32,428 nt of DNA from Balneolaceae bacterium (GTDB taxonomy: Bacteria; Bacteroidota; Rhodothermia; Balneolales; Balneolaceae): NCBI GenBank assembly GCA_007123715.1, contig SKKO01000359.1, forward strand, positions 1-32,428, given 5' to 3'. Below are positions 888-4,688 of the stretch, one piece after another. The notes below the pieces were generated by a model, which was given only the letters and a program-made list of their open reading frames with translations, ran no database searches and was not told the origin of the DNA. The position numbers were made by a program, and so were the translations under genes. Position 1 is the stretch's first letter. Each line of letters starts with the position of its first letter.

Positions 888-932
888 TATTAGATCTTCT
901 TTAGCCTGATTACTTAATTTATAGCTGGCCAT
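888..932 (-). pseudogene. parE: parE toxin, 5' fragment truncated by IS982
   Basis: On the minus strand an ATG at 932 opens a frame reading MASYKLSNQAKEDLI, a typical ParE/RelE-superfamily N-terminus. It overlaps the last 14 nt of parD, the usual antitoxin-toxin coupling. After exactly 15 codons, at 888, the frame enters the IS982 end and hits a stop at once. The remaining roughly 80 residues of a ParE toxin, including its catalytic or gyrase-binding part, are therefore missing here. They may persist on the far side of the insertion sequence, beyond the left edge. No functional toxin can be made from this fragment. The fragment is short, but its position, overlap and sequence agree. Confidence 0.75.
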
Positions 933-1170
933 CCCTACGTAACTGATTCTTTGACTCAGCTAAAATCTCATCACGTTTTTGATTGGTAAACCCGCTGGCT
1001 TCTGCTGCAATTAATTTTGCACGAATCCAGTTAATTTCTTCCTGCTGGTTCCGTTTTCTTCGAATAAGATCATTAATCAGTTCACTTTTGCTGGAATACT
1101 CCTCTTTATCCACCTGGGCTTTTAACCAGTCATCATTGGGTTTGGTAAGGGTTATGCTTTGTCGTGTCAT
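919..1170 (-). CDS. parD: ParD-like ribbon-helix-helix antitoxin
   Basis: An 83-residue antitoxin of a type II ParDE system. The N-terminal MTRQSITLTKPNDDWLKAQV forms the DNA-binding beta-strand and first helix of a ribbon-helix-helix. SSKSELINDLIRRK is the second helix, and the C-terminal part (RAKLIAAEASGF ... RDEILAESK) is the toxin-wrapping region usual for the CC2985/ParD branch. The start at 1170 is chosen because AGGAGG lies 4-9 bases upstream of it; a longer reading to 1221 would run through the palindromic operator. The gene is full length. Its partner parE overlaps the 3' end but is destroyed by an insertion sequence, so this antitoxin is an orphan and probably now acts only as an autorepressor. 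Confidence 0.85.
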   Translation of the reverse strand: MTRQSITLTKPNDDWLKAQVDKEEYSSKSELINDLIRRKRNQQEEINWIRAKLIAAEASGFTNQKRDEILAESKNQLRRDGQL

Positions 1171-1180
1171 GTATCCTCCT

Positions 1181-1208
1181 AATATTGGTGTAAATTTACA
1201 CCAATATT
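1181..1208. promoter_or_regulatory. Perfect 28-bp palindrome, ParD operator
   Basis: Both strands read the same across 28 bases, with arms AATATTGGTGTAAA and its exact complement, centred at 1194/1195. It lies 10 bases upstream of the parD start and just before its ribosome binding site. Ribbon-helix-helix antitoxins repress their own operon through such palindromes. A TTGCAC box upstream on the minus strand, 17 bases before the TAAATT in the palindrome centre, could form the promoter, so that repressor binding would cover the -10 region. The operator role is inferred from position and family. Confidence 0.75.
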
Positions 1209-1236
1209 GTATCACGTGCAATGATGGTGGTTGTAA

Positions 1237-1545: not shown

Positions 1546-1989
1546 TTAATCATGCATTGACTGCAGATGCACCGTATCCGGCCCGGCGATTTTGAAAACA
1601 CGATCGTCTTCTCTCCCCACGACGAAGTCCTGCCGGAAAAAGAGCGAATCAAGTTTTCCTTCCACAACAAGATCGATCCTGTTATTCATCCGGTCTGTCA
1701 GGCCGTCATGAAAAATAAAATATATACCACAACATCCGGGTTTTCCATTTAAGCATAAACCGGTTGGCGGTTTACATAAGTCAATTTCTTCCAAATTATT
1801 TTTTTTAAAAACACGGATTTGAACAGAATCGGCCGGCTCATTATCCGGCATCAAAATGGTTACCGGTACAATAGGATTCGGTTTATCGAGTACAGGAACT
1901 TCTGCCTGATCACAATGGGTAAATATTCCCAAAGCTAAGATCAACACTCCTATGTAAAAACACCGCGTAAGATTATTTATTTTATTCAT
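1546..1989 (-). CDS. Small exported protein, possible lipoprotein, function unknown
   Basis: A 147-residue protein with an N-terminal export signal: basic MNKINNLTR followed by a hydrophobic core FYIGVLILALGIF. A cysteine at residue 26 follows Thr-His, which is a poor lipobox, so lipid attachment is uncertain. The mature part starts with a proline-rich linker and then has alternating strand-like segments (PVTILMPDN, SVQIRVFKK, RIDLVVEGKLD, DRVFKIAG) that suggest a small beta-sandwich. Four clustered cysteines (CKPPTGLC, CC) could form disulfides. It starts 17 nt after the end of the protease reading frame on the same strand, with AGGAT upstream, so it was probably co-transcribed with the protease. 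No family recognised. Confidence 0.6.
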   Translation of the reverse strand: MNKINNLTRCFYIGVLILALGIFTHCDQAEVPVLDKPNPIVPVTILMPDNEPADSVQIRVFKKNNLEEIDLCKPPTGLCLNGKPGCCGIYFIFHDGLTDRMNNRIDLVVEGKLDSLFFRQDFVVGREDDRVFKIAGPDTVHLQSMHD

Positions 1990-2006: not shown

Positions 2007-4028
2007 TTAGTACGTTGTCTTGGGTTCTCCGTTTTGCAACAAATCAGCACGAATACCGGGAATACGGCTGAGATAAGATCTTGTTTGAAGTGGAGCTGTA
2101 GATCTGCCCCAAAGCAAACCTACCAGCAGTGCCGGCGACTCATAATCAGGCGAATCAACCCAAAATACAGGAGACCCACTGTCACCACTTCTGGCATAAG
2201 CATTACTTCGGATTTGGCATGCCAGTGTCCAGCCCGACAGGCCTGAAATATTACTTATATTTGTACAGTTACTCCTTATTGTACCTATAGTTCATCCTGT
2301 TCGTTGTCCTATTTTGTGTATTTGCAGGCCTTGAAATAATGGAGCGTAATCCTCGAATTCTCCCAAAATTTCTGCCCGGGCATAATCGTTTTGATAAGGT
2401 ATAAGGTCAATAGAGCCGTGATCTCCCCAAACCATTCCGGGATATTCTGTCCACAATATTTCATTAAATGCCAACTGCTGCCCTCCACTGTGATCGATTA
2501 TCGCAGTATCACTGAACCGTACACTGCCACCTCCCTCATAATCCCGGTATTCTATTCCAATGAAATGCGTGGACAGCGGAACCGATTGTTGATAGAAAGG
2601 AGTATTTCCTGTATGGCTGAAATCGTATGTACAGTGAGAATTGGTAATCCACTTATTAACACCATTTAATTTTATGTTAAAACCGAAAGTGCAATTTCGC
2701 ACATAATTTGATTCAGGGATTGGCCTTCTTATCAGCAAACCCCCTCTAAGTGGCCGGACTCTGTCTTCGAGTGTATGATTGCTTCTGAAAAGCATATTAT
2801 GAGTCATTGGATTGGATGCCACTTCAACTGGTTCGCTTTCATAAATGATAACGCCATTTTCAGAAATGGAGTATGTTCTCAATAGATTCTGGTAGTCTAT
2901 TCTGTTGGCAGTTTTTAAAATAGCTATGGAGAATGCATTTTCTTCCACATTGATGTAAGACTCCACAATATCATCACGCTCATGAATTACCGGGGTCAGC
3001 ACATCACGGATATATTGCAATTCATGGAATGTGTACCCGGTCTCTTTGATTCTGAATGACTCCACGTTTATACCGATATTTACTGAGTCAAATTTTTTCA
3101 GTATTTGGGAAGTTATTTCAGATAAAATGGATTCTCTTTGAGCTGCAAAACTCTCTTGTTCAACCAATGATACAACCATTTCTTCACGTTCCGGTTCGAA
3201 CCAAATACCTGCAAAACCGTCATATATTTCACTCAGTTTGTTTTTCATGCGTTCCGCTTTTTGTACAACCGGCAACTCACTGAAAGGCTTATTTTCATAA
3301 AATGTTGCTGTAAAAACGGTTGGTAGCACCGATGGTATGGCCGTCTTTCTCCGTTGAAATGTCTGTTCTATCGCTTTCTGAAGAAGCGCTCCTTCAAACG
3401 GAAGGTTCTGACACAAAAAATAGATATCGTAGAAATCCTTCATTCGGCTGTTAAGCATGTCCAGATCAATCATCGCCTGGTACTTTTCTGCAATGGCACT
3501 GACTAACGTATATGCTTGAATTTTGGGTTTTTCTCCATCCAGAATGGATGGAAACTCAATCCACAAAGGTTCCGGTGTAACAATATCCCCAAACCCTATA
3601 TCTATCTGGATTAATATCCGGGCGCTTCCCAGGCTCCCCTTAATTTTATATCGATACCTATCATACGCCTGGTTCTTCCGGATCTCATCTTCCTCTATCT
3701 CACCCGGGGCAAACTCCAATCCATCTTCTGGTACGCTCACAGTACAGCATTCTGCAATCATCCTTTTGATTTCGCTAATGGTTCTTTTCCCCGGACCGAG
3801 TAGATCAATGTCCCGGGTCGATCGTATCTCTGAAATACCTGTTGTACGCAGTAAAAGTGCGCCCTTCAGAACAAACTGATCTACATATTCAGATTGGCTT
3901 ATTCTGAATAGAAACCGCTCCATGGCATAATAGCCCAGCAGTTCATTGAATGGCCGCCCGGAACTCTTTGCCAGGTTTAACAGCAATTGATGAACAGATG
4001 CAGCTTTCTGTTGCCTAATTTTACTCAT
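2007..4028 (-). pseudogene. AbiEii toxin / S1-type protease chimera with in-frame TGA
   Basis: One frame of 673 codons broken by a TGA at 2292-2294. Residues 1 to about 245 are an AbiEii/DUF1814 nucleotidyltransferase toxin: FVLKGALLL (52-60), STRDIDLLG with metal-binding aspartates 73 and 75, DIGFGD (143-148), EKYQAM (181-186), SRMKDFYD (194-201). The usual last ~45-50 residues are absent. From about 250 the sequence becomes a secreted trypsin-fold protease without its signal peptide: pro-region-like FAGIWFEPE (272-280), WITNSHCT with catalytic His465, RFSDTAI with Asp507. The first stop follows HKIGQRTG, where the chymotrypsin-like pattern expects Trp. Reading on in frame gives 94 further codons including ARSGDSGSPVFW (Ser617, codon 2178-2180) and a TAA at 2007. 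The 578-residue product therefore lacks the catalytic serine. Its ATG overlaps the AbiEi stop as ATGAGTAA, the usual AbiE coupling. Confidence 0.8.
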
Positions 4029-4641
4029 ACGCCAGGGCCTCCATATAGGGTTTGATCACGGACTCTACCCTGCAAATATGGGCATATCGTATAATATCTT
4101 TATAGGTGGCCCTCCCTTGGGTAACGCCTTCCCGCAAAGCTTCAATGGCAATCTCTTTGCCGATTTGATTGCGAAATTTAAAGCAGTCCGCAATGGTCTT
4201 CGCGGGGTTGTATACCTGAATGGCCAGCCCGTCTACTGAATGCTTCTCAACCCCCTCTGTGAGGCTTTCATCTGAAAACCGGTAGACCTGAAGAGGAGGA
4301 TGATCAATTTTTGGGTCCCGCTGTGTTCGGGCAATGGCGATATGAACCCTGTGAGGAATCTCTTTTGTCATGTCGTGAAAATCAAGAGCCGAAAGCAGGC
4401 AAATCGTAGCCGAGGGTATCTTAGCTGCAACAATTACCAGATCCGGGTTGGATAGGGGTTTATCATCATTAAGTTTGTACAGTCCTCTTTCAAGCCGGAT
4501 GATCAACCCTTCATCCCGAAGTTTGTACAGAGTCCGGGGATGAATACCAGCCGAAAGGAGCTCAGAAGTACGCAGAACACCCCCCCTATTTTTAAACAGT
4601 TTGAACGCCTCATGGATTTTTTGATCATTGAGAATTGTCAT
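4021..4641 (-). CDS. abiEi: AbiEi-type antitoxin, transcriptional regulator
   Basis: Antitoxin and autorepressor of an AbiE (type IV) toxin-antitoxin system, about 206 residues. The N-terminal winged-helix part is clear: GGVLRTSELLSAGIHPRTLY, then GLIIRLERGLYKL. The C-terminal antitoxin domain follows, with the typical VYNPAKTIADCFKFRNQIG and IAIEALREGV. The ATG at 4641 is preferred because an upstream ATG at 4659 lies inside the inverted-repeat operator; neither has a strong ribosome site. The stop overlaps the start of abiEii by eight bases. The partner toxin is damaged by fusion and a nonsense codon, so this antitoxin has probably outlived its toxin. AbiEi proteins neutralise the toxin without stable binding and repress their own operon. 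Confidence 0.85.
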   Translation of the reverse strand: MTILNDQKIHEAFKLFKNRGGVLRTSELLSAGIHPRTLYKLRDEGLIIRLERGLYKLNDDKPLSNPDLVIVAAKIPSATICLLSALDFHDMTKEIPHRVHIAIARTQRDPKIDHPPLQVYRFSDESLTEGVEKHSVDGLAIQVYNPAKTIADCFKFRNQIGKEIAIEALREGVTQGRATYKDIIRYAHICRVESVIKPYMEALAYE

Positions 4642-4688
4642 GGATAATAAAGCATACATTTATCATTAAGTATATGCGTTATTATCCA
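4641..4688. promoter_or_regulatory. Inverted-repeat operator of the abiE operon
   Basis: Two 16-base arms in inverted orientation, TGGATAATAAAGCATA at 4641-4656 and its complement with one mismatch at 4673-4688, lie across the start of abiEi. The arms are separated by 16 bases, placing their centres 32 bp (about three helical turns) apart, so two repressor units could bind on one face. AbiEi of the streptococcal AbiE system is known to repress through paired inverted repeats at its own promoter; the same role is inferred here. Confidence 0.65.

What the first reader, a model, noticed from the sequence alone, without database searches (positions are those of the whole stretch)
2007..4028. AbiEii toxin fused in frame to a secreted trypsin-fold protease
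Residues 1-245 are an AbiEii nucleotidyltransferase with its catalytic aspartates, and residues from about 250 are a chymotrypsin-like protease with His465 and Asp507. Neither part is complete at the junction (near 3280-3310): the toxin lacks its C-terminus and the protease lacks its signal peptide. A deletion most likely joined two genes in frame. If similar joins exist elsewhere, this would instead be an unusual toxin-protease architecture.
Basis: partly seen in the sequence, partly recalled or inferred. Interest (0 to 1): 0.75.

Follow-up and report, generated by a model that had tools for sequence, protein, structure and literature searches.

The report
Chimeric toxin–protease pseudogene from a deletion
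A deletion has stuck the front of a toxin–antitoxin gene onto a beheaded secreted-protease gene, and a stop codon then cuts the protease off before its active site, so this is an ordinary broken gene and not a new toxin–protease design.

Summary
The chimera is real in the assembly. It lies on the minus strand: abiEii starts at 4028, homology switches at codon ~247-251 (window ~3275-3290), and the open frame ends at TGA 2292-2294 (578 aa). The TGA sits in a Trp column invariant in 11 intact relatives, upstream of the GDSGSP serine, so the protease lacks its nucleophile as well as its signal peptide. AbiEii relatives (300-315 aa) match residues 1-247 and continue ~58 residues; protease relatives (alpha-lytic/streptogrisin-like secreted lipoproteins) match from ~250 and begin ~45-50 residues earlier with a lipobox. 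None of the hits inspected joins the two, in GTDB r220, IMG/VR, plasmids, phages, or whole genomes from genus to phylum. Each half keeps its native outer neighbour: abiEi overlaps abiEii; a small lipoprotein follows the protease, as in two relatives. The missing toxin tail is absent from the 98%-complete genome. Best reading: an in-frame deletion between two co-oriented operons plus a nonsense codon, in a variable TA-rich spot next to hflC. A misassembly cannot be fully excluded. Low interest.

The parts
4641..4688 (.). Palindrome (22-nt arms 4641-4662 and 4667-4688, 86% complementary) at the abiEi start; probable AbiEi operator
   Evidence: AbiEi autorepression through inverted repeats is known from PMC3985639 and PMC7319586; operator role here is inferred
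4021..4659 (-). abiEi antitoxin, intact; homologues suggest the true start is the ATG at 4641 (206 aa); its 3' end overlaps the abiEii start
   Evidence: PF13338 AbiEi_4 E 7e-13; PADLOC AbiEi E 4e-75
3288..4028 (-). 5' part of abiEii (residues 1-247) with motifs I (KGA 55-57), II (DID 73-75), III (EKYQAM 181-186), IV (KDFYD 197-201); last ~58 residues missing
   Evidence: motif definitions from PMC3985639
3272..3302 (-). Junction: AbiEii homology ends at codon ~247, protease homology starts at codon ~247-254
2007..3287 (-). Protease remnant: most of the pro-region, mature start RPLRGG, His465, Asp507 and (after the TGA) Ser617; signal peptide and ~45-50 N-terminal residues missing
2292..2294 (-). 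In-frame TGA in a column that is Trp in all 11 intact relatives; truncates the protein at 578 aa
2169..2186 (-). GDSGSP catalytic-serine motif, downstream of the TGA and so not translated
1546..1989 (-). Small lipoprotein gene (147 aa, lipobox-like FTHC); probable native neighbour of the protease, as in two relatives

Best explanation
Two neighbouring, co-oriented operons, abiEi-abiEii (a type IV toxin-antitoxin/abortive-infection pair) and a secreted S1-type protease plus a small lipoprotein, were joined by a deletion that removed the last ~58 codons of abiEii, everything in between, and the first ~45-50 codons of the protease (start, signal peptide, lipobox). The join happens to be in frame. 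A nonsense mutation, before or after, ended the frame ahead of the catalytic serine. The product, if made, is a 578-residue cytoplasmic hybrid: an AbiEii core with all four catalytic motifs but no C-terminal tail, followed by an inert pro-region and part of a protease. It is most likely non-functional, with the intact AbiEi antitoxin able to neutralise any leftover activity. Shown: anatomy, missing ends, stop codon, absence of fused relatives among hits inspected. Inferred: the deletion event, its order relative to the TGA, and loss of function.
For: AbiEii relatives match only residues 1-247 and have 300-315 aa frames in the order; protease relatives match only from ~242-264 on. Beyond 247 the few AbiEii alignments that run on (to 264-274) are gapped and near-random. 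The aligned ends show the missing toxin tail and missing signal peptide. Each half keeps its outer native neighbour: abiEi overlapping upstream and the lipoprotein downstream, found next to the protease in G052 and G036. The missing AbiEii tail is nowhere else in the 98%-complete genome, while the same query finds 10 of 12 control loci. TGA falls on an invariant Trp; the protease half also changed 4 further residues invariant in relatives (P143S, A146G, C257V, G276N), the most of any row. The neighbourhood is variable: the nearest relative has a PIN-domain TA-like pair after hflC instead.
Against: No close relative with both genes intact and adjacent in this order was found, so the ancestral arrangement and the exact breakpoint are inferred. 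Protease relatives are only 24-31% identical. Raw reads were not available, so a misjoin or a base error at the TGA is not excluded.
Confidence: 0.84

Rival explanations
1. Assembly chimera: the metagenome-style assembly (390 contigs) misjoined an abiE contig and a protease contig, so no cell carries the hybrid.
For: 390-contig assembly with an IS982 transposase at the contig end; no independent assembly of the same junction found.
Against: The missing AbiEii tail is not found elsewhere in the genome (control), nor is a second copy of the protease; no long repeat at the junction that would cause a misjoin; a misjoin landing in frame has a one-in-three chance.
Confidence: 0.12
2. A functional new toxin-protease architecture in which the AbiEii nucleotidyltransferase gained a protease module.
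For: In-frame join and all four AbiEii motifs present.
Against: No listed homologue spans both halves in any collection searched; the long AbiEii frames checked have no C-terminal extension; no signal peptide; TGA before the catalytic serine; poor predicted fold of the hybrid (mean pLDDT 56, shallow alignment).
Confidence: 0.02
3. The TGA is read as Trp (recoding or read-through), so a full 673-residue hybrid is made.
For: Relatives have Trp in this column and the frame continues open through GDSGSP to TAA 2007-2009.
Against: Seven of 22 window ORFs listed end in TGA, this one included, and TGG codons are common; HflK ends in TGA at the same length (338 aa) as in its nearest relative; the signal peptide is missing in any case.
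Confidence: 0.02

Closest known systems
AbiE type IV toxin-antitoxin system (AbiEi/AbiEii; PF13338/PF08843)
   Same: Two overlapping genes in the standard order, intact antitoxin, toxin core with motifs I-IV, palindrome at the start of abiEi
   Different: Toxin lacks its last ~58 residues and runs into an unrelated gene
Alpha-lytic protease/streptogrisin-type S1 serine proteases (profile hits 1hpg, 1sgd, 1p01)
   Same: Pro-region, mature start xPLxGG, His-Asp-Ser order, trypsin fold
   Different: No start or signal peptide of its own; stop codon before Ser; relatives are lipoproteins of this class of bacteria with no Pfam hit above cut-off
Chimeric pseudogenes formed by intergenic deletion
   Same: In-frame join of two truncated genes whose outer neighbours are preserved, plus a nonsense codon
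   Different: Nothing notable

Membership tests
AbiE type IV toxin-antitoxin system | AbiEi antitoxin gene directly upstream, overlapping or abutting | tested here: met
AbiE type IV toxin-antitoxin system | AbiEii/DUF1814 nucleotidyltransferase motifs I-IV | tested here: met
   KGA 55, DID 73-75, EKYQAM 181, KDFYD 197 (motif definitions in PMC3985639)
AbiE type IV toxin-antitoxin system | Full-length toxin (about 300 aa with a C-terminal tail, QW..F in most relatives aligned) | tested here: not met
   homology stops at residue 247
AbiE type IV toxin-antitoxin system | Toxicity neutralised by AbiEi | not testable with these tools
   needs expression assays
Alpha-lytic/streptogrisin-like secreted S1 protease | Trypsin fold related to solved members | tested here: met
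   profile hits to streptogrisin and alpha-lytic protease E 3e-5 to 6e-4; Foldseek E down to 5e-11 (NAL1) and 3e-7 (alpha-lytic) with a model of mean pLDDT 62
Alpha-lytic/streptogrisin-like secreted S1 protease | Complete His-Asp-Ser triad in the translated protein | tested here: not met
   Ser617 lies after TGA at codon 579
Alpha-lytic/streptogrisin-like secreted S1 protease | Signal peptide or lipobox | tested here: not met
   N-terminal ~45-50 residues of relatives absent

The most novel reading that the evidence does not exclude
The 578-residue hybrid is expressed and still acts as an AbiEii-type toxin whose C-terminal tail has been replaced by the folded pro-region of a protease.
Probability: 0.03. 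Interest if true: 0.45.

Novelty: already known. Interest (0 to 1): 0.1.

Why it matters
It matters mainly as a caution: annotation of this frame would report a toxin-protease fusion that is a decayed gene. It also shows that TA modules next to hflKC in this group are gained and lost. If the hybrid were active, it would show that the AbiEii C-terminal tail is replaceable.

Tried and rejected
Fused homologues: searched genus-to-class relatives, an even phylum sample, GTDB r220, IMG/VR, plasmids and phages with the hybrid; none of the listed hits spans the join; rows cut from the outputs were not inspected. Long AbiEii frames elsewhere (495, 509, 536 aa): the AbiEii match ends at the C-terminus and the extra length is N-terminal stop-to-stop read-through; two further frames of 401-414 aa fetched gave no hit with my subfamily HMM and were not resolved. 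AbiEii homology past residue 247 (hits to 264-274): gapped, low identity. TGA recoding: rejected, TGA is a normal stop here. Missing AbiEii tail elsewhere in the genome: not found, control positive. Ancestral arrangement next to hflC in relatives: neighbourhood variable, neither abiE nor the protease in the stretches read. Breakpoint microhomology: not definable without parental sequences; repeats near the join are unremarkable. NCBIfam has no model for the hybrid or the protease relatives. The structure of the whole hybrid was low confidence (mean pLDDT 56) and was not searched.

Full report
What is there. The feature is on the minus strand. An ATG at 4026-4028 opens a 578-codon frame ending at TGA 2292-2294. 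Residues 38-253 match AbiEii (PF08843, E 6e-39, profile 1-199 of 238; PADLOC AbiEii E 1e-79, residues 7-246). Upstream, overlapping the start, is an intact abiEi (PF13338; PADLOC E 4e-75). The four AbiEii motifs defined by Dy et al. (PMC3985639) are all present: KGA at 55, DID at 73-75 with the 15-residue spacing, EKYQAM at 181, KDFYD at 197-201.

The second half. From about residue 250 the protein matches a family of lipobox-bearing proteases of this class of bacteria. An intact member used as query matches window 2010-3290 with one stop inside, from its residue 45 on (E 3e-28); a 12-row profile matches 2034-3290 from model position 48, the only copy in the genome. The profile reaches streptogrisin B and alpha-lytic protease by sequence (E 4e-5 to 6e-4), and the model of the read-through half (mean pLDDT 62) matches trypsin-fold structures. 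His465, Asp507 and Ser617 fall in TNSHCT, SDTA and GDSGSP, but Ser617 is after the TGA.

The junction. Relatives of the toxin half match 1-247 and have frames of 300-315 aa in the order; relatives of the protease half match from about 242-264 on. A few AbiEii alignments run to 264-274, but that tail is gapped and near-random. The missing pieces are the ~58-residue toxin tail (QWRAF...GW in the nearest relative) and the protease's N-terminal ~45-50 residues with signal peptide. The tail is not elsewhere in the 98%-complete genome, although the same query finds 10 of 12 control loci at genome-sized E-values up to 0.001.

The second lesion. The TGA falls in a column that is Trp in all 11 intact relatives. 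TGA is a normal stop here: seven of the 22 window ORFs listed, including this one, end in it, and HflK ends in TGA at the same length as in its nearest relative. The protease half has also changed four more residues invariant in relatives, besides the absent N-terminal Met and lipobox Cys, more than any other row; this is suggestive only, since it is also the most divergent row.

Neighbours. Downstream of the protease lies a 147-aa lipoprotein; a profile of its family finds a counterpart directly downstream of the protease in G052 and G036 (E about 1e-10 and 1e-11 in a small set). So each half keeps its own outer partner: abiEi on one side, the lipoprotein on the other. Most other protease loci read have different neighbours. 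Next to hflC, relatives carry varied genes; the nearest (92% identical HflC) has a PIN-domain TA-like pair.

No fused relatives. None of the listed hits spans the join in GTDB r220 (80 best of 355 confirmed), IMG/VR (6 loci), plasmids (632 records, none covering 80% of the query), phages (16 records, none covering 80%), 119 relatives and 394 phylum genomes. A class-wide AbiEii search over 245 genomes gave this as the longest frame among the matches listed; three other long frames are N-terminal stop-to-stop read-through.

Interpretation. A deletion between two co-oriented operons, in frame by chance, plus a nonsense codon, explains all observations. A misassembly is the main rival and needs reads. 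A functional toxin-protease is very unlikely. The finding is an ordinary chimeric pseudogene.

Noticed in passing
919-1221 (minus): ParD-like antitoxin gene (PF03693 E 6e-6; TIGR02606 E 1e-8, below cut-off) with no ParE partner beside it; an IS982 transposase (1-873, plus) sits where the toxin would be expected.
   Followed up: partly
4641-4688: Palindrome (86%) overlapping the annotated abiEi start; fits an AbiEi operator, and homologues suggest translation starts at the ATG at 4641 rather than 4659.
   Followed up: partly
1546-1989 (minus): Unnamed family of ~145-aa lipoproteins (pattern YxIxHDG) found in 10 other genomes of 119 searched, on its own in the loci read but next to the protease in two others; no Pfam or NCBIfam model.
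   Followed up: partly
L166 (own genome C35), L168 (own genome C221): The same genome has four other AbiEii-like matches; one (C35) gives only a 194-codon frame covering profile 52-221 and may be another decayed copy; C221 is cut by the contig end.
   Followed up: partly
L108:637-1314: PIN-domain toxin-antitoxin-like pair directly after hflC in the nearest relative, where this window has abiE: a variable spot for TA modules.
   Followed up: partly
L172, L173, L174, L175, L176, L192 (protease relatives): Several intact relatives of the protease have GTSGSP instead of GDSGSP, an unusual change next to the catalytic serine.
   Followed up: no
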